DNA of 18,354 bases, from contig JAGCBE010000014.1 in assembly GCA_017652345.1 (NCBI GenBank), positions 1 through 18,354 of the forward strand, in the 5' to 3' direction. Source of the DNA: Methanobrevibacter sp. Lineage in GTDB: Archaea > Methanobacteriota > Methanobacteria > Methanobacteriales > Methanobacteriaceae. Below are positions 2,400 through 17,993 of this stretch, piece after piece; within the stretch, counting starts at the first letter, position 1, and each line of letters starts with the position of its first letter. Both the position numbers and the translations under genes were made by a program. The notes beneath the pieces are model-generated. The model had not been told where the DNA came from, did no database searches, and worked only from the letters and a program-made list of their open reading frames with translations.

Positions 2400-3626
2400 T
2401 CACCATATATTAAAGAACAGCAATCTAAGTTCCTTAATAATTAATTCATCAATATTTAAGAAAGTATCTCTAAATTTAAGAAGAGATTCACTGGGATTTC
2501 TTCCTCTATATCCAGTTACTCTTTCCAAATAATCAATAGTATCATGTGCTGTACCATCAGTTTTAACATTACTATCAAATTTATCATTTATATTACTATC
2601 ATAATCTCTAATCTTACCATAATCTAAGGTATCAGTCTTACCATATTCTATTGTATCAGTTCTTTCAACATCTGTATCACTTACCTTTCCATATTCAGTA
2701 GTATCAGTTTTTCCGTAATCAGTTGTATTTGTCTGACCATACTCTGTAGTATCAACTTTTCCATACTCTGTTGTATTAGTTCTTCCATAGTCAGTAGTAT
2801 CTGTTCTTCCATATTCAGTTGTACTATCACTATTTGTACCAAGAGTATCACCAAAAACATGACGAGCATTTGTAAGGTAACCATTATCACCTAAACTGGG
2901 TGAATCTTCTGCTCCTTCTATACCTTTAATGCTACCCTGTGGAGTATCACTATATAAATCCCATGTATTTGTAATATCATTACTATTTAGTGTAGTAGTA
3001 TCTTCACCACCAAGAGTTGTTACATCTTGACCACCAAGTGTTCCAACATCCTGTCCAGTAGTAGAAATAACATCTTGACCACCAAGTGTATTAACATCTT
3101 GACCACCAATTCTATCAACATCGCTTCCACTTAATGTATTGTTTTCTTCACTAACAATATTTGTAACATCTTGTCCACCAAGAGTTCTCACATCATTACC
3201 GCTATTTTGTTCTTTGTCTTTTATATTTTTAACATCTGTATTATCAGTAACAGTCTCATCTTCATGTGTATTATCTTGCTTAATATCTCTATCAGTAAGA
3301 AGGTCAGTATCCCAAAGGGGGTTAAATTTAATTAATTCACTATTATACAGCTGATTATAATAGGGCATAATTTCATTTAATTTAGCACGAAGCCTAAGTT
3401 TCCAAAGGCTATATGTTTCTTCTGAAATTTCCCTTGTATAATAGTGCATTAAAATTTTAGATTCAAGTACTGGTTTATAATCGTTATCAAAAATAGGATA
3501 ATTAAAGTCAAAAATTTTAGGTCTTGCCTTTTCTATTATTTTGTCAACATCAAAATATCCTTTAGATTCACCCATGCCAGAAAGTTGTTCACAAATGAAT
3601 CTTACCTCTGTTGTGTATTTACTCAT
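2400..3626 (-). CDS. Lower collar protein (phi29 gp11-like) with two tandem-repeat arrays
   Basis: The protein has 408 residues, longer than phi29 gp11 (about 293 from memory). Residues 1-110 form a helical N-terminal part (HYYTREISEETYSLWKLRLR). The C-terminus (GYRGRNPSESLLKF...NIDELIIKELRLLFFNIW) matches the helical ending typical of gp11-like collars. Between them are two arrays of nine 8-residue units, GTLGGQDV-type at 147-218 and TTEYGKTD-type at 269-340, separated by a non-repeat segment with YSDTPQGS and GYLTNARH, also typical of this family. The ATG overlaps the portal stop (ATGA) and has AAAGG upstream at about 10 nt. It should form the ring below the portal that carries tail and appendages. 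The extra length is almost entirely the repeats. Confidence 0.8.
   Translation of the reverse strand: MSKYTTEVRFICEQLSGMGESKGYFDVDKIIEKARPKIFDFNYPIFDNDYKPVLESKILMHYYTREISEETYSLWKLRLRAKLNEIMPYYNQLYNSELIKFNPLWDTDLLTDRDIKQDNTHEDETVTDNTDVKNIKDKEQNSGNDVRTLGGQDVTNIVSEENNTLSGSDVDRIGGQDVNTLGGQDVISTTGQDVGTLGGQDVTTLGGEDTTTLNSNDITNTWDLYSDTPQGSIKGIEGAEDSPSLGDNGYLTNARHVFGDTLGTNSDSTTEYGRTDTTDYGRTNTTEYGKVDTTEYGQTNTTDYGKTDTTEYGKVSDTDVERTDTIEYGKTDTLDYGKIRDYDSNINDKFDSNVKTDGTAHDTIDYLERVTGYRGRNPSESLLKFRDTFLNIDELIIKELRLLFFNIW
2607..2822 (-). repeat. Tandem repeat array 2 in lower collar gene (9 x 24 bp)
   Basis: Nine in-frame 24-bp units encode 8-residue repeats of the form TT(E/D)YG(R/K/Q)(T/V)(D/N), residues 269-340. 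Eight of the nine keep the (E/D)YG core; the seventh unit has drifted to DTDVERTD. Units differ at synonymous and non-synonymous positions, so the array is old or under selection rather than freshly duplicated. Confidence 0.9.
2973..3188 (-). repeat. Tandem repeat array 1 in lower collar gene (9 x 24 bp)
   Basis: Nine 24-bp units encode residues 147-218 with consensus xTLGGQDV. The second (TNIVSEEN) and last (TTLNSNDI) are the most diverged. It has the same unit length and number as array 2, but an unrelated sequence. Confidence 0.85.
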
Positions 3627-4570
3627 TGTTTACTAACCTTTCTCATCTGATTTGGGTTTGCTGAATTATTTGATCTAATGTCAACATACATAGGAACGGC
3701 TTTATCATCAGAAGTAACACCAGTAAGCATGAATTCATCATCCTGCTCTCTGAAATCATCCCTATACTCAACATCAACATCAAGACCAAACATATCATTA
3801 ATTTTTTCGCAGGCTTCTTTTCTGGCATTAAGTCTTGAATATCTACTTGCAATAACACCACCAAGATTTCTTGCAACTTCATCAGAAACAAGTCTTTCTT
3901 TTTTCTGAATGTTCAAGTTACTTATGCCAAGATAAGTAAGTGCTTCATTCCAATACTGTGTCTTAAGCATTGTAAGTTTATCAGCAACATAAGGAACACC
4001 AGTTTGAATAGCTTTCAAAGGTGTGTTTTGCAGAGCATTGTCTCCAAAAATAACAGGCTGATTTCCATCATATTGCATATACAAATTTTGTAGAGTAAGT
4101 CTTTGTGTTTCTTCGCATTCAATAAGTATAGGTGTTTTTTGACCATTAACATTAATATCAATTGTTCTGTCAATATTATACAGTCTTCTACTGAACATTT
4201 CAACATCAAGTTTACTGGGTGTTCTTAAGTAGTTATTATAAATCATAACGCTATCATCAATTGTTAGTTCAGCATTATAACCATTACTTGCATAGGCTCT
4301 TCTTCTTAAAGGTATTCTATAGACATTCATCGGACCCATATCACTAACCATCAAAGCCATATATCCAATATCTGGGTCTTTGAAAAATATTGCCTTACCT
4401 TTAGCAAAAAGAACCAGTTCTAAAAAACGTGGGTCGATTTCTTCTGGTAAGTTTATCCATTCAAACATACTTATAGCTAATTCTGTCAACCTATTATAAT
4501 ATTGTATATAGGTTGCATTGTTCATCATAGCACTATCCCAGAAGTTTCTATCTTTAGTTCGTCTACTCAT
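3623..4570 (-). CDS. Portal / upper collar connector protein (phi29 gp10-like)
   Basis: The 315-residue protein is close to phi29 gp10 (309 aa from memory). It forms the dodecameric connector at the portal vertex through which the motor drives DNA. Family-like features are the N-terminal aromatic FWDSAMMNNATYIQYYNRLTE region, the IDPRFLELVLFAKGKAIFFKD segment, the DNALQNTPLKAIQTGVPYVADKL region and the long helix VSDEVARNLGGVIASRYSRLNARKEA. A longer reading could start at GTG 4576, but that GTG lies inside the GAGGTG Shine-Dalgarno, which serves ATG 4570 at good spacing, so 4570 is chosen. The upstream tail-knob stop overlaps that same site. The stop overlaps the next ATG (ATGA). Confidence 0.9.
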   Translation of the reverse strand: MSRRTKDRNFWDSAMMNNATYIQYYNRLTELAISMFEWINLPEEIDPRFLELVLFAKGKAIFFKDPDIGYMALMVSDMGPMNVYRIPLRRRAYASNGYNAELTIDDSVMIYNNYLRTPSKLDVEMFSRRLYNIDRTIDINVNGQKTPILIECEETQRLTLQNLYMQYDGNQPVIFGDNALQNTPLKAIQTGVPYVADKLTMLKTQYWNEALTYLGISNLNIQKKERLVSDEVARNLGGVIASRYSRLNARKEACEKINDMFGLDVDVEYRDDFREQDDEFMLTGVTSDDKAVPMYVDIRSNNSANPNQMRKVSKQ

Positions 4571-4577
4571 AATCACC

Positions 4578-6092
4578 TCAATTTAATGAACGTCTAATAT
4601 TTCTTCTGATCTTAATTCCTCTTTTAACATAAGCATTAAGAATATCATCAACTTCGCTACCATGAAGAAAATCATTACCAGTTTGTAAAAAAGCACCATC
4701 GTCTGTGTTTGCACCTACAAAACCATTTACACTATATCCATAATAAGAAAAGAACTGATCTAATAATTCAGCATCACTTCTGTAATGATGAGAATGAACA
4801 ACATCAATTATAATTTGATTTTGATTATTAAGAATCAGATTACCTGCTGATGTATTAATACCTGCTGTTGGCATAGCACTTTTAGTAATATTTTTGATTA
4901 CACCAAACATATTAAACCAACTATTAATCGCACCGCCAGTTATTTGTCTGTTATCTGGTTGACTAAAATCACGCGAAAAACTGTGACCACCGCCACCACC
5001 TCTACCGCTGAAATAATTTTCTGCATTATGTTGCGTACTACTTATTTGCTGTTCAAACGTCTGATTATATGGGTCGTGCATTCCAGTTTGTAACGAAGCA
5101 ATATGGGCAAAATTTGATATAGCATTACTAATTGTAAAATTATCTTGAAAAGATATAGGAACAGAAGGTAATGGTATCACTAATCCTTCGGCAGTATTTT
5201 CCGCAACACCTTCGTAATTCAAAGGATATATAATTTCACATGGTGCAGGCATAAACATAAATTTAATTCTGAATTCTATAGTGGGTTTATTTGTCCATTT
5301 CATTAAGTCATATTCACGTGCAACACTACCTGCAACAACAGAAATTTTATTATATTGACCACCTTTTAATTTAGCATGATTACCGTAGAATGTTAATGTG
5401 GGTGATATATCAACACTTTGAGGAATAACACCTTGTGACATCGCTTGAGGAACAGCGTAAGCACCAATAATATTACCACCTGCTTCAACAATCTGTTGGG
5501 CATCCTGTGTAGATGGATTAATAATATACTGTATACCAGTATCATAACCAAGAATACTTAAACTATTAGCAGTAAATGTTGTATCACAAGTGAATAGCAT
5601 CATTATAGCACCAAGACTTGTTACATTATGTGATACAACGGTAAACTCTACACCTTTTCCGAAAAAATCAAAATCTTCTTCATTATTTATATAATCATTA
5701 TCTGGGTATTGTGTTTTTCTTATAACATAAGGTATAACATTAGGTGTAGTATCACCAAGATAAGTTGGAAATGGGTCAATAGTAAAATCAATTTCAGTAG
5801 TATTATCATTTATATAAACAAGTTGATCTATAAAACCAAAGAAAATCTTATTTCCATGTGAGTTATTTACAAAACTTAAATAATTACACCCTTCACATTC
5901 TTGAATTGGTGCTTTAACTCTAACATAACTTCTATTTTCTCTGGTATATGAATAATTTGTAAAAGTTCTATATATGTAATCCTGTAACTGAGTCAATGCA
6001 TCTTGCTGATACACATATAGTACTTCAACACCACCCTTAAGAAGCGGTACACCTTTATACAAAATTAAAGAAGTATTAAATGTTGTTGCCAT
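4578..6092 (-). CDS. Distal tail knob protein (phi29 gp9-like)
   Basis: At 504 residues it is shorter than phi29 gp9 (599 aa). The N-terminus (FNTSLILYKGVPLLKGG, then YVYQQDALTQLQDYIYRTFTNY, and DFTIDPFPTY around residue 103) follows the gp9 pattern of 'cgvPLd..y.n.i.F' plus 'yyidp..ty'. The C-terminal SDAELLDQFFSYYGYSVNGF is the usual gp9 signature. Between them, residues about 310-420 are less conserved, with a glycine run at about 363-370 and Ala/Ile/Gly-rich stretches. In phi29 a corresponding long hydrophobic loop plugs the tail and enters the host membrane, so a similar use is plausible. AAGGAG precedes the ATG by 7 nt, directly after the 6107-6130 hairpin. Confidence 0.88.
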   Translation of the reverse strand: MATTFNTSLILYKGVPLLKGGVEVLYVYQQDALTQLQDYIYRTFTNYSYTRENRSYVRVKAPIQECEGCNYLSFVNNSHGNKIFFGFIDQLVYINDNTTEIDFTIDPFPTYLGDTTPNVIPYVIRKTQYPDNDYINNEEDFDFFGKGVEFTVVSHNVTSLGAIMMLFTCDTTFTANSLSILGYDTGIQYIINPSTQDAQQIVEAGGNIIGAYAVPQAMSQGVIPQSVDISPTLTFYGNHAKLKGGQYNKISVVAGSVAREYDLMKWTNKPTIEFRIKFMFMPAPCEIIYPLNYEGVAENTAEGLVIPLPSVPISFQDNFTISNAISNFAHIASLQTGMHDPYNQTFEQQISSTQHNAENYFSGRGGGGGHSFSRDFSQPDNRQITGGAINSWFNMFGVIKNITKSAMPTAGINTSAGNLILNNQNQIIIDVVHSHHYRSDAELLDQFFSYYGYSVNGFVGANTDDGAFLQTGNDFLHGSEVDDILNAYVKRGIKIRRNIRRSLN

Positions 6093-8291: not shown

Positions 8292-8839
8292 AAATTTATA
8301 CTTCCTTCATAGTTAATCCAAGGTAATCTTCCAGAAAGTGTAAAGTTGGTGCTTCTGCCATCAGCATCATCAAATCTATATTCACGAATACCAACAAATT
8401 CACAGCAACCATCAATTATAAGTCCATTACCTACATCAGCACCAACATGACCTTCTTTCCAAAGAACCTGTCCCCACAAACCGTCTGGTATTGTAGTGAT
8501 ATATCTAAGATTATTTTTTATCCCAAGACTTGACATATCATTTTTTACATAGAAATCATAAATGTCACCTTGACATTGTGAAAAAGCTAATATAAGTGAT
8601 GAACAGTCAAACACTTTTTTACCTTTTACTCTTTCTACTAAGTCTTCAAATTTATAACCTTTTTGTGTTACATATTTTTCAAAGTGTGATGGATATAATT
8701 CCCAATTTTGCTTGCAGAGTTTATAAGCCTTGTCATATGTATCAAGAATTTCACCGTTAGAGTTATACAGATAATCAAAGTCTTGTTTATGTATATACAT
8801 TAGTCTTAAATCTCTAACAAAATGTTGCCATTGTTTCAT
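8288..8839 (-). CDS. Endolysin, NlpC/P60-like cysteine peptidase/amidase
   Basis: The 183-residue enzyme cuts peptidoglycan for host lysis. The motif KVFDCSSLI supplies the likely nucleophile Cys79, and WKEGHVGADVGNGLIIDGC supplies His131. Together these are the core of NlpC/P60 and related papain-like amidases. The N-terminal 70 residues are helical and not recognised. There is no signal peptide, in keeping with release through the adjacent holin. No separate wall-binding domain is apparent; the last 40 residues are too short for a typical one. GAGGT precedes ATG 8839 by about 9 nt. It is the first gene of the late operon, whereas in phi29 the lysis genes come after the structural ones. Confidence 0.85.
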   Translation of the reverse strand: MKQWQHFVRDLRLMYIHKQDFDYLYNSNGEILDTYDKAYKLCKQNWELYPSHFEKYVTQKGYKFEDLVERVKGKKVFDCSSLILAFSQCQGDIYDFYVKNDMSSLGIKNNLRYITTIPDGLWGQVLWKEGHVGADVGNGLIIDGCCEFVGIREYRFDDADGRSTNFTLSGRLPWINYEGSINL

Positions 8840-8860
8840 ATCTACAACCTCTAAATAAAC

Positions 8861-8901
8861 GTGCTGTGTGAAAGAAAAATACTAAAAGAAAAACACAGCA
8901 C
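8861..8901 (-). promoter_or_regulatory. Leader hairpin in the late-operon 5' untranslated region
   Basis: Arms GTGCTGTGT (8861-8869) and ACACAGCAC (8893-8901) are perfectly complementary over 9 bp, with a 23-nt loop that is U-rich in the late transcript. It sits between the predicted late promoter and the endolysin ribosome binding site. It lacks a following U-tract in either direction, so a 5' stabiliser or control structure is more likely than a terminator. Confidence 0.55.
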
Positions 8902-8980
8902 TTAATACGAAAATTACTGACAGCTATATTACAAAAATGAAGGAACATGACAAGTTCAAGTATTTATTCTTTTATTATTT

Positions 8981-9009
8981 ATAATACCACTATTGACAAA
9001 ATTTGTCAA
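8981..9009 (-). promoter_or_regulatory. Sigma-A-type promoter of the late operon (minus strand)
   Basis: Read leftward: TTGACA (9009-9004), a 17-nt spacer, then TATTAT (8986-8981), preceded by TGG as an extended -10. The -35 box is the right arm of the palindrome at 8993-9009. It drives the endolysin-to-appendage operon. Confidence 0.75.
8993..9009. promoter_or_regulatory. 17-bp perfect palindrome shared by two divergent promoters (operator candidate)
   Basis: TTGACAAAATTTGTCAA is a perfect inverted repeat of 8-bp arms around a central A. Each arm contains one TTGACA -35 box, one per strand. A dimeric regulator bound here would block both promoters. Without one, RNA polymerase could hold only one direction at a time. 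Confidence 0.75.
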
Positions 9010-9021
9010 GTACTGTATAAT
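8993..9021 (+). promoter_or_regulatory. Consensus sigma-A promoter of the packaging-ATPase cassette
   Basis: TTGACA (8993-8998), a 17-nt spacer and TATAAT (9016-9021) form an exact consensus promoter, about 27 nt before the start codon and ahead of an AAAGGAGG ribosome binding site. The leader is expected to be only about 20 nt. Confidence 0.85.
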
Positions 9022-9047
9022 TATAGATAGTAAAGGAGGAATGTTTG

Positions 9048-10085
9048 ATGAGTAATTATTATGATGGTACGAAATTATTATCACTCAAGGATATTAACGG
9101 AAATGTTCCAGAGGTTTATATATGTACTTCTAACAGAACCGCTGGTAAAACAACATACTTTAACAGGCTATGCCTTAATAGATTCCTTGATAAAAATGAA
9201 AAATTTATGATAATCTACAGGTTTACATATGAACTTGATGATTGCGCAAATAAATTTTTTAAGGTAATTAACAACCTTTTCTTTCCAGATGGGTATATGA
9301 ATAGTAAAAGAAAAGCACATGGATATTATCACGAACTGTATTATAATGATAAATGCTGTGGATACGCTGTTGCACTTAATTGCGTAGATAATATTAAAAA
9401 GACTTCACAGGTTTTTAGTGATGTTAGAAGAATGCTAATGGATGAATTTCAAAGCGAAACGAATCACTATACATCTAATGAAGTAGATAAACTAATTAGT
9501 TTGCATACCTCAGTTGCGCGTGGTGAAGGTGAACAGGTTAGATATGTTCCAATATATTTAGTAGGAAATCCTGTCTCAATTATTAATCCTTACTATGTTG
9601 CTATGGGAATCTCTGCAAGACTTAATGACAAGGTTAAGTTCCTTAAAGGTAATGGATATGTTTTGGAACAGGGATATAATGAATCTGCTTCAAGAGCGCA
9701 AAAAGAATCTGGGTTTAATAAGGCATTTGCGGGAAATCAATATTTAGATTATAGTGCAGAAGCTGTATATCTTAATGACAATACAGCATTTATTGAAAGA
9801 CCTGCAAGTAAGAACAGCAAATATATTGCTACAATTAAATACAAAGGTACAGAATATGGTTTGAGAGAATATAAAGATTTGGGTATTGTATACTGTGACA
9901 ATAGACCAGATACTTCATATCCTTATAAAATTTCTGTTACAACGGAAGATCACAATATTAATTATGTTATGTTAAGGCAAAACGATTTATTTATTTCACA
10001 GCTTAGGTTCTTCTTTGAAAAAGGTTGCTTTAGATTCAAAGACCTTAGATCAAAAGAAGCGTTACTTACTTGTATATCATATTGA
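9048..10085 (+). CDS. DNA packaging motor ATPase (phi29 gp16-like)
   Basis: The 345-residue protein matches gp16 (332 aa) in size. It is the ring ATPase that pumps DNA into the prohead. CTSNRTAGKTTYFNR (27-41) is a Walker A/P-loop with Lys34 and Thr35, and RRMLMDEF (128-135) is a Walker B with Asp132 and Glu133 by my count. VARGEGEQVR (about 157-166) carries candidate trans-acting arginines, and YLVGNP (170-175) is a sensor-like strand. The C-terminal about 80 residues contain basic and aromatic strands, like the gp16 nucleic-acid-binding domain. The frame could begin at TTG 9045, but ATG 9048 lies 8 nt after AAAGGAGG and is chosen. It is the only protein gene on this strand, and is followed directly by a structured RNA and a terminator. 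Confidence 0.92.
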   Translation: MSNYYDGTKLLSLKDINGNVPEVYICTSNRTAGKTTYFNRLCLNRFLDKNEKFMIIYRFTYELDDCANKFFKVINNLFFPDGYMNSKRKAHGYYHELYYNDKCCGYAVALNCVDNIKKTSQVFSDVRRMLMDEFQSETNHYTSNEVDKLISLHTSVARGEGEQVRYVPIYLVGNPVSIINPYYVAMGISARLNDKVKFLKGNGYVLEQGYNESASRAQKESGFNKAFAGNQYLDYSAEAVYLNDNTAFIERPASKNSKYIATIKYKGTEYGLREYKDLGIVYCDNRPDTSYPYKISVTTEDHNINYVMLRQNDLFISQLRFFFEKGCFRFKDLRSKEALLTCISY

Positions 10086-10201
10086 TATATCTACTGATGT
10101 AAAATTACTTGTAAACCGTGGGTAGCACACTTGGAATATAGTGCCATGGGTTTTAATTCGGTATTGCTAACCGCTTGTAATCAGCATCAGCTATAGATAT
10201 A
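10086..10201 (+). ncRNA. Candidate packaging RNA (pRNA-like three-way-junction RNA)
   Basis: A 116-nt non-coding stretch between the ATPase stop and the terminator folds by eye into a three-way junction. The closing helix pairs 10086-10093 with 10194-10201 (8 bp) and 10094-10099 with 10185-10190 (6 bp), leaving a 3-nt CTA bulge; ATTAC 10104-10108 with GTAAT 10177-10181 extends it. Hairpin A (10113-10153) pairs AAACC with GGTTT and GTGG with CCAT, has a 5'-side GTAG bulge, an inner CAC/GTG stem and a 12-nt loop. Hairpin B (10159-10173) has a CGGT/ACCG stem and 7-nt loop. The bulge TAGC (10123-10126) is complementary to GCTA (10166-10169) in loop B. From memory, phi29 pRNA has the same order: closing helix with a 3-nt bulge, long hairpin with a 5'-side loop, 15-nt hairpin, and loop-loop pairing that joins subunits. 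No sequence identity to phi29 pRNA is claimed. Confidence 0.72.
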
Positions 10202-10203
10202 AG

Positions 10204-10231
10204 AAAAGGGTGGATTTTGCTCCACCCTTTT
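10204..10231. terminator. Strong bidirectional intrinsic terminator
   Basis: AAAAGGGTGGA and TCCACCCTTTT form an 11-bp stem with a 6-nt loop (TTTTGC). T-rich sequence follows on both strands, so it can stop the rightward ATPase/pRNA transcript and the leftward early operon, whose last gene stops 3 nt away. Confidence 0.92.
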
Positions 10232-10233
10232 CG

Positions 10234-10440
10234 TTATTCAATTTTTGTTAATGAGAAAGCTAATACATTGTTCATGTCTACTCTGTTTTCTGTAAATGAT
10301 TTTGATTCCTCTTTGTAGTTATAAAAAACTAATTCTCCATTTGTAAAGTAAGGATTTAAGCAATTATAATATAGGTTACAAGTACCATCTTCTTTATCTA
10401 TAACAATGTTGTATTTATATGGAAATGCTGATCTGTTCAT
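10234..10440 (-). CDS. Hypothetical protein, last gene of early operon
   Basis: A 68-residue protein of unknown function. It is Asn/Tyr-rich (NIVIDKEDGTCNLYYNCLNPY) and probably a small beta-sheet fold, with no membrane segment. AGGAG lies 4 nt before the ATG, which overlaps the previous stop (ATGA). The tight coupling and good ribosome binding site support it as real. It ends directly at the shared terminator. Confidence 0.7.
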   Translation of the reverse strand: MNRSAFPYKYNIVIDKEDGTCNLYYNCLNPYFTNGELVFYNYKEESKSFTENRVDMNNVLAFSLTKIE

Positions 10441-10730
10441 AATGCTCCTTCCGGAATACCATAGAAAATAAATTCTGGTTTTCTACAAAACGCAGTTCTT
10501 TTCCACTTATCTACTACAACAGATTCCTGTGAAGAAGGAAAAGAAAAAATTGTTCTTTCATTACCGCTTGAATCAATATTTTTAATCCATCTGCTGTTAT
10601 TTTCGTTAAAATGATATGTTTTATTTAATTCTGAAATTTTATCTAACCATTCGGATAGATTGTTTGTTCTTAATAAACACACTACATTTTCAGTTTTGCA
10701 ACCATTATGAGCATTTATTATTAGTGTCAT
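10437..10730 (-). CDS. Hypothetical early protein
   Basis: A 97-residue protein of unknown function, beginning MTLIINAHNGCKTENVVCLL. The frame could extend to GTG 10742, but that codon is inside the GAGGTG Shine-Dalgarno that serves ATG 10730 at 9 nt, so 10730 is chosen. The 3' end overlaps the next ATG (ATGA), and the 5' end overlaps the membrane-peptide gene by 26 nt. The mixed alpha/beta pattern (NNLSEWLDKISELNKTY) shows no catalytic motif I recognise. Confidence 0.7.
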   Translation of the reverse strand: MTLIINAHNGCKTENVVCLLRTNNLSEWLDKISELNKTYHFNENNSRWIKNIDSSGNERTIFSFPSSQESVVVDKWKRTAFCRKPEFIFYGIPEGAL

Positions 10731-16184: not shown

Positions 16185-16206
16185 TTGCAGTTTGGCATTT
16201 CTGCAA
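16185..16206 (-). promoter_or_regulatory. Hairpin between tRNA-like element and paralog A gene
   Basis: TTGCAG (16185-16190) and CTGCAA (16201-16206) form a perfect 6-bp stem with a 10-nt loop, in the leader of the p6-like gene and immediately 3' of the tRNA-like element. No U-tract follows in the transcribed direction. Confidence 0.4.
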
Positions 16207-16207
16207 T

Positions 16208-16324
16208 TCCTGCACTGAGGAATCGAACCTCAGATTTCACAAGGCACGGTTTGCTGACATTTTTATTTTCAGAATAAATTGCTGTATGTGCCTTTCTCGT
16301 GTTCTGCCATTGAACTATGCAGGA
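16208..16324 (-). ncRNA. tRNA-like element with extended anticodon arm (possible pseudo-tRNA)
   Basis: Reading leftward, TCCTGCA (5') pairs perfectly with TGCAGGA (3') as a 7-bp acceptor. TA then GTTC-AATGGCA-GAAC forms a normal D arm, and CTGAGG-TTCGATT-CCTCAG a T arm with a canonical T loop. Between D and T arms a conventional 17-nt anticodon arm is missing; instead there is a long arm: CAC, a GAGA bulge, AAGGCAC paired with GTGCCTT, and an AT-rich tip TTTAT-TCTGAAA-ATAAA. If the tip is read as an anticodon loop, position 33 is C instead of the invariant U. No CCA is encoded. The total is 117 nt instead of about 75. It fills most of the 171-nt gap between 16157 and 16329. It may be a broken tRNA, a tRNA mimic, or an RNase P processing signal in the early mRNA. 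Confidence 0.6.
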
Positions 16325-16328
16325 CTAA

Positions 16329-16541
16329 TTAAATATTTGTGTATTCTTTTACTTGATCTGATAAATCAAACATTTGAATTATCTTAAGTGCTGACATTAG
16401 AGATATTATTTTCATTTTATCTACATCAAATTCAGCGTTCAAATACTCGTCCTTGTCTACATCTTTAAGAGTGTCTAATAACATGGATAATGCAACGGCT
16501 AAGGTGTTTTTATCAATTTCATTTAACTGTATTGTTTTCAT
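16329..16541 (-). CDS. Small hypothetical helical protein
   Basis: A 70-residue protein, almost entirely helical (NTLAVALSMLLDTLKDVDKD, then DVDKMKIISLMSALKIIQMF), with a probable helical-hairpin fold. GAGAGG lies 6 nt before the ATG, which comes 1 nt after the preceding stop. No known motif. The tRNA-like element begins 4 nt after its stop. Confidence 0.7.
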   Translation of the reverse strand: MKTIQLNEIDKNTLAVALSMLLDTLKDVDKDEYLNAEFDVDKMKIISLMSALKIIQMFDLSDQVKEYTNI

Positions 16542-17184: not shown

Positions 17185-17220
17185 TTTGTTTTTTCTCCTT
17201 TTTTATTTGTATTCTTTTTA

Positions 17221-17249
17221 AGGCAGTTTTACATCATGCCCGGGATGTG
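17221..17249 (-). repeat. 29-bp intergenic element, copy 1
   Basis: It matches 17965-17993 at 28 of 29 positions (AGGCAGTTTTACATC then ATGCCCGGGATGTG; the difference is A versus G at position 5). ACATC and GATGT form a 5-bp stem around a CCCGGG-containing loop. It lies in the 77-nt gap upstream of the gene starting at 17184. Confidence 0.85.
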
Positions 17250-17907: not shown

Positions 17908-17964
17908 GGAAATACTCTGCTTTTCACAGTGCGACTTGTAACGCATCATAGTAGCATTATTTCC
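17908..17964 (-). promoter_or_regulatory. Long imperfect stem-loop in early-gene leader
   Basis: In the minus transcript GGAAATA (17964-17958) pairs with TATTTCC (17914-17908), enclosing TGCT/AGCA and TGCG/CGCA pairs around a TTACAAGT loop. It abuts 29-bp element copy 2 and precedes the 17878 start, so it is probably a folded 5' leader. Confidence 0.4.
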
Positions 17965-17993
17965 AGGCGGTTTTACATCATGCCCGGGATGTG
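17965..17993 (-). repeat. 29-bp intergenic element, copy 2
   Basis: The partner of 17221-17249, identical except for one base. It lies between the p6-like paralog C stop and the next gene, again in the leader of a downstream gene, flanked by hairpins on both sides. Confidence 0.85.

What the first reader, a model, noticed from the sequence alone, without database searches (positions are those of the whole stretch)
10086..10201. Candidate packaging RNA placed directly behind its motor ATPase
The 116-nt gap between ATPase stop and terminator folds into a three-way junction whose segments (23-nt 5' strand, 41-nt hairpin, 15-nt hairpin, 25-nt 3' strand) mirror phi29 pRNA. It has a 3-nt bulge in the closing helix, a 5'-side bulge in the long hairpin, and a 4-nt complement (TAGC/GCTA) between that bulge and the short hairpin loop, the arrangement by which phi29 pRNA subunits interlock into a ring. 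In phi29, from memory, pRNA is encoded at the genome left end away from gene 16; here it would be co-expressed with the ATPase. The fold was made by hand; function is inference.
Basis: partly seen in the sequence, partly recalled or inferred. Interest (0 to 1): 0.95.

Follow-up and report, generated by a model that had tools for sequence, protein, structure and literature searches.

The report
Packaging RNA encoded behind its motor
Small phages of animal and human guts carry, directly behind the gene for their DNA-packing motor, a conserved RNA that folds like the packaging RNA of phage phi29 and keeps the paired loops that link phi29's copies, which suggests that RNA-containing packing motors reach well beyond Bacillus phages.

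Summary
Of 120 distinct ATPase ends, 104 have a covariance-model match. In 71 of 100 rows at least 4 contiguous Watson-Crick pairs join the hairpin bulge to the short-hairpin loop (shuffled mean 19.3, maximum 30 of 1000). In the window these are TAGCA/TGCTA; relatives have TTGCA/TGCAA, TAGGA/TCCTA, CTACA/TGTAG and others.

Rfam's phi29 family (RF00044) does not match at E up to 10. The place is new: a sigma-70 promoter precedes the ATPase, promoter-like matches are not enriched just before the RNA, and a terminator-like hairpin follows. Other lineages (Hungatella, Eggerthella, faecal phages) seem to carry a similar RNA upstream of the ATPase.

Best reading: a functional pRNA that rings the portal and bridges it to the ATPase, made as the 3' part of the ATPase transcript. 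Structure and loop covariation are shown; ring and packaging are inferred. New variant of a known kind; functional membership could not be tested.

The parts
8993..9021 (+). sigma-70-type promoter TTGACA-17-TATAAT, 12 of 12 matches, ending 23 nt before the ATPase ORF
   Evidence: the region 8700-10500 has 22 promoter-like sites on both strands against 10.8 in shuffles; this is the only 12/12; 88 of 115 distinct relatives have a match of at least 10/12 in front of the ATPase, against about 10 of 118 random segments
9045..10085 (+). gp16-type DNA packaging ATPase (likely start ATG at 9048)
   Evidence: Pfam Podovirus_Gp16 1e-29, PHROG 2150 terminase 3e-51, PDB chain 7jqq_A 1.4e-22
10086..10201 (+). 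pRNA-like structured RNA, starting at the base after the ATPase stop codon
   Evidence: covariance model R1, 103 bits, E 4e-18 (the window is one of its 42 building rows); covariation
10086..10093 (+). closing helix, outer part, 5' strand (pairs with 10194-10201)
   Evidence: helix 1, 97.8% of cells paired
10094..10099 (+). closing helix, middle part, 5' strand (pairs with 10185-10190)
   Evidence: helix 2, 98.0% paired, changes on both sides at all 6 pairs
10104..10108 (+). closing helix, inner part, 5' strand (pairs with 10177-10181)
   Evidence: helix 3, 92.7% paired, changes on both sides at all 6 model pairs
10116..10121 (+). long hairpin, lower stem, 5' strand (pairs with 10144-10149; can extend outward to 10113-10153)
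   Evidence: inner two pairs 96.5% paired, outer three only 71.4% (helices 5 and 4)
10122..10127 (+). 5'-side bulge GTAGCA, counterpart of the phi29 right-hand loop
   Evidence: bulge/loop pairs: 5 pairs, 86.3% paired, covariation 0.496 against shuffled 0.162
10128..10143 (+). long hairpin, upper stem (10128-10131 with 10140-10143) and loop TGGAATAT
   Evidence: helix 7, 98.3% paired; commonest loops GTGAAATATA, TTGGAAGATA, TTTGAATGTA, TTGGAATATA
10159..10173 (+). short hairpin CGGU-AUUGCUA-ACCG; loop 10163-10169 is the counterpart of the phi29 left-hand loop
   Evidence: helix 8, 90.0% paired; loop complementary to the bulge
10177..10201 (+). 3' strand of the closing helix, with 3-nt bulge 10191-10193
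10203..10232 (+). 12-bp terminator-like hairpin between the RNA and the converging genes
   Evidence: one search lists it on the - strand only; on + the T run overlaps the stem. A loose terminator pattern follows in 96 of 115 distinct relatives against 41 of 118 random segments

Best explanation
The gap encodes a packaging (prohead) RNA of the phi29 kind. The RNA folds into a closing helix with a long hairpin and a short hairpin at a junction. Copies link by pairing the bulge of one with the short-hairpin loop of the next into a ring. The ring sits on the portal (connector gene 3623-4576) and holds and gates the gp16-type ATPase during DNA packaging. It is transcribed from the ATPase promoter as the 3' part of the ATPase mRNA and ended by the terminator hairpin, so one transcript supplies both motor parts. 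Shown here: the RNA, its structure and its bulge/loop covariation. Inferred: intermolecular linking, ring, portal binding, packaging role, and release of the RNA by a cut at or near the ATPase stop codon.
For: The genome has the phi29 motor set: gp16 ATPase, connector, phi29-type capsid and type-B polymerase. Structure: 92.6% of cells paired, covariation 0.729 against shuffled 0.170 on 100 rows; on the MAFFT alignment made without structure 86.6% and 0.568 against 0.172. A scan not told the structure ranked the closing helix, the bulge/loop pairs and the upper stem highest (the lower stem and short hairpin, blurred by gaps, ranked low there). Bulge/loop: 71 of 100 rows with at least 4 contiguous WC pairs against shuffled mean 19.3, maximum 30; own-against-swapped 34 of 43 against mean 9.0, maximum 16. 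R1 at E 0.02 or better finds one site per locus, on the + strand downstream of the ATPase, in 104 of 120 distinct ATPase ends. The order helix, hairpin with 5' bulge, short hairpin, helix is that of RF00044. In phi29 unpaired loop mutants are inactive and re-paired ones active (PMC12670572, section 4 part 1). Promoter before the ATPase, none enriched before the RNA.
Against: No transcript or packaging data. Sequence cannot separate pairing between molecules from pairing within one, and the window's own MFE makes the bulge/loop pairs within one molecule. The junction is more open than phi29's (7 and 9 unpaired nt, or 4 and 5 if the long hairpin extends to 10113-10153; 1 and 3 in Rfam's structure) and the 3-nt bulge is on the other strand. 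No Rfam match. R1 does not find the phi29 pRNA; R2 without filters puts the second of its two phi29 hits on it, at E 9.5, not significant. Of 15 distinct ends missed by R1, three (L109, L129, L163) show no such RNA by eye, and for L050, L079, L126, L127, L155 and L158 my reading by eye was not confirmed by the descriptor. Of 100 rows, 4 have fewer than 3 contiguous WC bulge/loop pairs and 25 have 3.
Confidence: 0.87

Rival explanations
1. A cis-acting 3' UTR element of the ATPase mRNA. The fold, with an internal pseudoknot between bulge and loop, protects the mRNA or binds the ATPase to set its level, and it is not a motor part.
For: The RNA appears to share a transcript with the ATPase, with no promoter enrichment before it, and starts within 10 nt of the stop codon in 90 of 100 rows. 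The MFE pairs bulge and loop within one molecule.
Against: The anatomy is that of phi29 pRNA in order, bulge side and loop complementarity. In L160 a 149-aa ORF (8331-8780) lies between the ATPase and the RNA, which starts at 8784. In other lineages a similar RNA seems to lie upstream of the ATPase, starting where a promoter would start it. A pRNA could also regulate in cis.
Confidence: 0.08
2. A pRNA that works while still joined to the ATPase mRNA, or to its 3' piece with the terminator hairpin, so that translation and motor assembly are coupled. (A variant inside the best explanation; its odds are counted within it.)
For: No promoter enrichment before the RNA; the closing helix abuts the stop codon; the phi29 174-nt pRNA also carries a 3' extension that is not needed for packaging (PMC11476376, passages).
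Against: Purified phi29 proheads hold the 120-nt form (PMC11476376, passages). Nothing here tests for cleavage.
Confidence: 0.15
3. Chance or terminator-related structure without function.
For: From the window alone the fold has a z-score of only -2.37.
Against: Covariation in 100 rows and on the alignment made without structure; one site per locus at a near-fixed place.
Confidence: 0.01

Closest known systems
phi29 prohead/packaging RNA, Rfam RF00044 (Phage_pRNA)
   Same: Closing helix, long hairpin with a 5'-side bulge, short hairpin, 3' strand; 116 nt here, 118 model positions in Rfam; bulge complementary to short-hairpin loop; genome with gp16-type ATPase, connector and phi29-type capsid. 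The long-hairpin loop of phi29 (UUGAGU) recurs in relative L074.
   Different: No RF00044 match at E up to 10. Encoded directly behind the ATPase instead of at the left genome end behind its own promoter; more open junction; 3-nt bulge on the 3' strand; a UUGAAAUAUA-like loop and a nearly invariant UAUC/GAUA end of the closing helix.
Other Bacillus-phage pRNAs (GA-1, Goe4 group, DLc1 group, WhyPhy)
   Same: Low sequence likeness with a kept structure, and loop pairs that change together (PMC12670572, sections 4 part 1, 11 and 21 read; PMC5340915, PMC6266182 and PMC9965433, passages).
   Different: [quoted passage not shown] none is said to lie behind the ATPase.
'packaging RNA' annotated in Actinomyces phage Av-1 (NC_009643, misc_RNA 16295-16402)
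   Same: A deposited claim of a pRNA outside Bacillus phages.
   Different: It overlaps two annotated genes (ORF C and ORF B), 1.5 kb beyond the ATPase; my descriptor did not find it in the fetched stretch. The basis of the annotation was not seen.

Membership tests
phi29-type packaging RNA (pRNA) | Closing helix carrying a long and a short hairpin, in that 5'-3' order | tested here: met
   order as in RF00044
phi29-type packaging RNA (pRNA) | 5'-side bulge of the long hairpin complementary to the short-hairpin loop, changing together | tested here: met
phi29-type packaging RNA (pRNA) | Genome encodes gp16-type ATPase and phi29-type connector | tested here: met
   (window)
phi29-type packaging RNA (pRNA) | Asymmetric bulge in the closing helix, 5' strand in phi29 | tested here: inconclusive
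   The 3-nt bulge at 10191-10193 is on the 3' strand; there is also an internal loop of 4 by 3 nt at 10100-10103 and 10182-10184
Rfam RF00044 (Phage_pRNA) | Match to the RF00044 covariance model | tested here: not met
   None at E up to 10 in the window or in L001, L010, L017, L020. I do not claim RF00044 membership. [quoted passage not shown]
phi29-type packaging RNA (pRNA) | Multimer formation, binding to the connector, need in packaging | not testable with these tools
   Requires wet-lab work
phi29-type packaging RNA (pRNA) | Discrete RNA of about 120 nt on proheads | not testable with these tools
   No transcript data held

The most novel reading that the evidence does not exclude
RNA-containing packaging motors are widespread among gp16-type phages, and the usual home of the RNA gene is beside the ATPase gene: behind it in the clade of the window, in front of it (starting at the promoter) in the Hungatella, Eggerthella and several faecal lineages, with the left-end position of the Bacillus phages as one case among several. 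In the window's clade the RNA is cut from the ATPase mRNA, so that motor protein and motor RNA are made from one transcript.
Probability: 0.5. Interest if true: 0.9.

Novelty: new variant of a known kind. Interest (0 to 1): 0.8.

Why it matters
[quoted passage not shown] About a hundred covarying sequences from another clade, from gut-type metagenomes, would turn one model system into a broad family. That gives natural variation for judging which parts of pRNA matter, how ATPase and RNA evolve together, and whether ring size (five or six, still debated: PMC12670572, section 21) leaves marks. It also predicts that DNA packing motors containing RNA are common in animal and human guts.

Tried and rejected
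Rfam at relaxed thresholds found no RF00044 in the window or in four relatives. The nested MFE fold was weighed as an alternative and rejected (with the caveat that the alignment was fitted to the other fold). Chance structure is rejected. A separate promoter for the RNA was looked for in the last 60 nt of the ATPase: none of 115 has 10/12 or more and 10 have 9/12, against about 1 and 7 in control stretches of the ATPase. In the window, + strand matches of 9-10/12 do occur further inside the ATPase, so an internal promoter is not excluded. Searches for viral contigs relatives of L059, L058 and L065 found none. Note 4 says 77 loci hit; the recount is 78 of 95.

The descriptor gave no hit that convinced me in 44AHJD, Cp-1, ascc-phi28, Weissella, Curtobacterium or Rhizobium phages (top scores 28, 33, 35, 34, 35, 36; within the family none of 55 hits away from the RNA site reaches 36, but 2 of 51 in reversed sequence do). 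It is noisy in GC-rich genomes (10 hits in Eggerthella phage LE1-1, 15 in Curtobacterium phage Reje) and insensitive (19 of 47 genomes in the family's own zone, against about 0.25 expected), so absence there is not shown. In phi29 its top hit overlapped the real pRNA but mis-set the short hairpin and so the loop pair; in KonjoTrouble and WhyPhy its hits were not at the left end. In L074 a hit elsewhere (37) outscored the one behind the ATPase (36). The upstream RNAs of other lineages rest on the descriptor (L062 score 31, L064 37, L065 40, L172 32; the low ones are within the range of chance hits and count only by position) and on reading by eye (L063, L170, L171, L173); they were not tested by covariation.

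Rows dropped: A1 used 42 of the 47 distinct trimmed rows (L014, L015, L049, L050 and L051 left out for odd length or fit). Trimming used the conserved UAUC and GAUA ends, which favours the outer helix. A3 is fitted to the model, which favours the model's pairs but not the bulge/loop pairs, which were not in it. One search kept the best 80 of 241 relatives, so 161 were not seen.

Full report
WHAT THE WINDOW IS. The window is 18,354 b of a small phi29-like phage: Pfam finds Podovirus_Gp16 (9045-10085, + strand), Phi29_MCP, Phage_connector, DNA_pol_B_2 and a holin, and PHROGs agree. The ATPase is on the + strand; the other named genes I scanned are on the - strand. A perfect sigma-70 promoter lies at 8993-9021, just before the ATPase ORF, and a 12-bp terminator-like hairpin at 10203-10232 (listed for the - strand only). 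Between stop codon and hairpin lie the 116 nt of the finding; no ORF of 60 aa or more is listed in the gap. No whole genome is held for the window.

CHECK OF THE OBSERVATION. From the one sequence the evidence is moderate: MFE -30.2, z -2.37, 4 of 200 shuffles as good, and the MFE joins the bulge and the short-hairpin loop inside one molecule. The drawn pairs alone score -26.3, enforced with extra pairs -28.5, and the fold becomes the optimum (-28.8) if the bulge is held unpaired, as it would be if paired to another molecule.

RELATIVES. The ATPase found 53 loci in IMG/VR, 51 of them with the ATPase end. A profile of eight diverse ATPases found 241 stretches in IMG/VR, of which 80 loci were kept, some on contigs seen before, and 19 loci in bacterial genome bins (Lachnospiraceae, Clostridia, Bacilli, Gastranaerophilales and others; many contigs are of phage size, so the host is by binning only). 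Two faecal phage records in GenBank are 61-64% identical. Of 149 loci with an ATPase stop, 120 are distinct in their last 90 nt. A covariance model R1, built from 42 rows of a plain MAFFT alignment with a structure that I gave, hits 104 of these 120 at E 0.02 or better; one of the rest is a contig end and 15 are missed. Apart from these the two searches gave three hits elsewhere, at E 1.7 to 9.6. A second model R2, built from 100 rows, recovers three of the 15 at E 0.018 or better (L108, L120, L121) and two weakly at the right place (L116 0.12, L158 0.43). The descriptor confirms L074, L120 and L145. In L050, L078-L080, L126, L127 and L155 I read complementary loops by eye, not confirmed by descriptor or model; in L109, L129 and L163 I see none. 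In L059, a faecal phage whose ATPase is 40% identical to the window's, a compact version of about 80 nt follows the ATPase stop, with TGCTA/TAGCA loops (R2 E 1.8); for L058 I could not decide. In 90 of 100 aligned rows the RNA starts within 10 nt of the stop codon (median 0). In L160 it starts 472 nt downstream, 3 nt behind a 149-aa ORF that follows the ATPase.

COVARIATION. A scan that was told no structure ranked these helices highest on the MAFFT alignment: closing helix middle and inner parts, bulge/loop pairs, long-hairpin upper stem; the lower stem and the short hairpin, which gaps blur there, ranked low. For the full structure with bulge/loop pairs, 86.6% of cells pair on this alignment and the covariation score is 0.568 against shuffled 0.172; slides by 1-3 columns give 0.113 or less. 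On the 100-row alignment the figures are 92.6% and 0.729 against 0.170. That alignment was fitted to the model's helices, but the bulge/loop pairs were not in the model: 86.3% paired, score 0.496 against 0.162, 86 cells changed on both sides against 24.7 in shuffles (one measure there, number of pairs with a change on both sides, 5 against 4.0, is reached by 134 of 500 shuffles). In 71 of 100 rows at least four contiguous Watson-Crick pairs form; 25 have three and 4 fewer; with loops swapped among genomes the mean of rows with four or more is 19.3 and the maximum of 1000 shuffles 30. Shuffles do not keep relatedness, but slides do, and they fail too. The nested MFE alternative is weaker: its private pairs beside the bulge/loop pairs covary at 0.00-0.43, those of the drawn fold at 0.00-1.29.

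HOW IT MOST LIKELY WORKS. From the literature: in phi29 a pRNA ring with the connector and gp16 makes up the packaging motor (PMC11476376, passages); complementary right- and left-hand loops join the subunits, and unpaired loop mutants are inactive while re-paired ones work (PMC12670572, section 4 part 1 read). Shown here: the same anatomy with loop complementarity kept by compensating changes, and the same motor proteins in the window. Inferred: that pairing is between molecules, that a ring forms on the portal, and that packaging needs it. Expression: of 115 distinct relatives with enough upstream sequence, 88 have a promoter-like match of at least 10/12 before the ATPase (27 of them 12/12) against about 10 of 118 random segments; none of 115 has one in the last 60 nt of the ATPase, and 9/12 matches there (10) are close to the control rate (about 7); a loose terminator pattern follows in 96 of 115 against 41 of 118 random segments. 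So the RNA is most simply the 3' part of the ATPase transcript, and either a cut near the stop codon (not shown) or work while tethered must be assumed.

COMPARISON. phi29 has its pRNA at the left end (RF00044 match 318-201, - strand, 145 bits) and a terminator beginning 29 nt after gene 16. Rfam's structure has the same order of elements, a 9-nt 5' bulge and a 3-nt bulge on the 5' strand of the closing helix. The window's RNA differs in the side of the 3-nt bulge, in wider junction gaps and in sequence; RF00044 does not match it. R1 does not find phi29 pRNA. Without filters R2 has two hits in the phi29 left end; the second lies on the pRNA (L054 315-208, -) at E 9.5, which is not significant. 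I therefore claim that it works like a pRNA and has the class's structure and gene company, not that it is an RF00044 member; functional criteria are untested.

BEYOND THE CLADE. A descriptor search (two hairpins, bulge/loop complement of 4 or more, closing helix) has in the window a single hit, the RNA itself. In the family it hits the zone after the ATPase in 19 of 47 genomes, against about 0.25 expected from its rate elsewhere (55 hits in 658,207 b, both strands; 51 in reversed sequence). Outside, it points to RNAs upstream of the ATPase in Hungatella phage CH17P1 (L062), Eggerthella phage LE1-1 (L064; a small ORF lies between) and its relative L172, and faecal phage MT836502 (L065); scores 31-40, the low ones within the chance range. 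By eye L063, L170, L171 and L173 have similar RNAs there. In L062, L063, L065, L170, L171 and L173 a promoter-like match of 10-11 of 12 ends 5 to 10 nt before the closing helix as I read it, about where transcription would start; in L064 and L172 the distance is 15-18 nt. R2 without filters has its best hit at the L170 site (E 0.14) and one at the L065 site (E 8.1), none at the L062 or L173 sites. On an ATPase tree of 36 rows the window's clade (14 rows labelled 'behind', some by eye, and L058 undecided) has 98/89 support; the upstream cases fall in two groups, one well supported (100/100) and one weakly (85/71), and the left-end Bacillus cases in one (99/89) (long branches, root for drawing only). 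These upstream RNAs are leads, not tested families.

NOVELTY. Seven searches of the open-access library were seen only as far as listed (for example 15 of 51 papers, 10 of 104). Among the listed titles, abstract starts and the passages I read, none describes a pRNA behind the ATPase or in this clade; most subscription papers and all preprints are not held. Claims outside Bacillus exist: the Av-1 record annotates a packaging RNA, and PMC6266182 (passages) speaks of a pRNA of Cp-1 that its model could not reliably identify, citing a 1996 paper that I did not read. A 2025 paper found 12 further pRNAs with phi29, GA-1 and DLc1 seeds (PMC12670572; outline and abstract, sections 4 part 1, 11 and 21, and passages). 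Other papers seen: PMC9965433, PMC5340915, PMC3362512 and PMC8216284 (passages only).

Noticed in passing
L062 13687-13790; L170 2883-2990; L171 2820-2940; L065 1483-1575; L063 5857-5966; L173 1874-1987; L064 12550-12628; L172 1842-1935: pRNA-like RNAs upstream of the gp16 ATPase in other phi29-like lineages (Hungatella, Eggerthella, faecal and IMG/VR phages), ends as read by eye; in six of the eight a promoter-like match ends 5-10 nt before the RNA.
   Followed up: partly
L060 14939 (- strand): In a phage record from vaginal secretion (OP549880) the descriptor gives a high-scoring (40) pRNA-like RNA (GGAAA/TTTCC loops) away from the ATPase; a small annotated ORF overlaps it.
   Followed up: no
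L061 within 4565-4845: Enterococcus faecium phage: the gap before the scaffolding gene holds a hairpin with a UGAAAUAU loop like that of the family; possible pRNA, by eye only (the descriptor and R2 do not hit it).
   Followed up: no
window 16205-16326 (- strand): tRNA-like cloverleaf with 7-bp acceptor stem, D-arm-like hairpin, perfect T arm and an anticodon-like stem enlarged by about 45 nt; ARAGORN and Rfam do not call it a tRNA. The T-arm motif is in 2 of 174 loci (L053, L088).
   Followed up: partly
window 17216-17249 and 17960-17993: Two copies (91% alike) of a 34-nt repeat holding the inverted repeat ACATC...GATGT around CCCGGG, between small genes near the right end.
   Followed up: no
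L063 816-891 (+): Pistol ribozyme above Rfam's gathering score in a phi29-like faecal phage.
   Followed up: no
window 2400-3626 (- strand): The lower-collar-type protein carries runs of GGQDV-like and TTEYGK-like repeats in its middle (translation).
   Followed up: no
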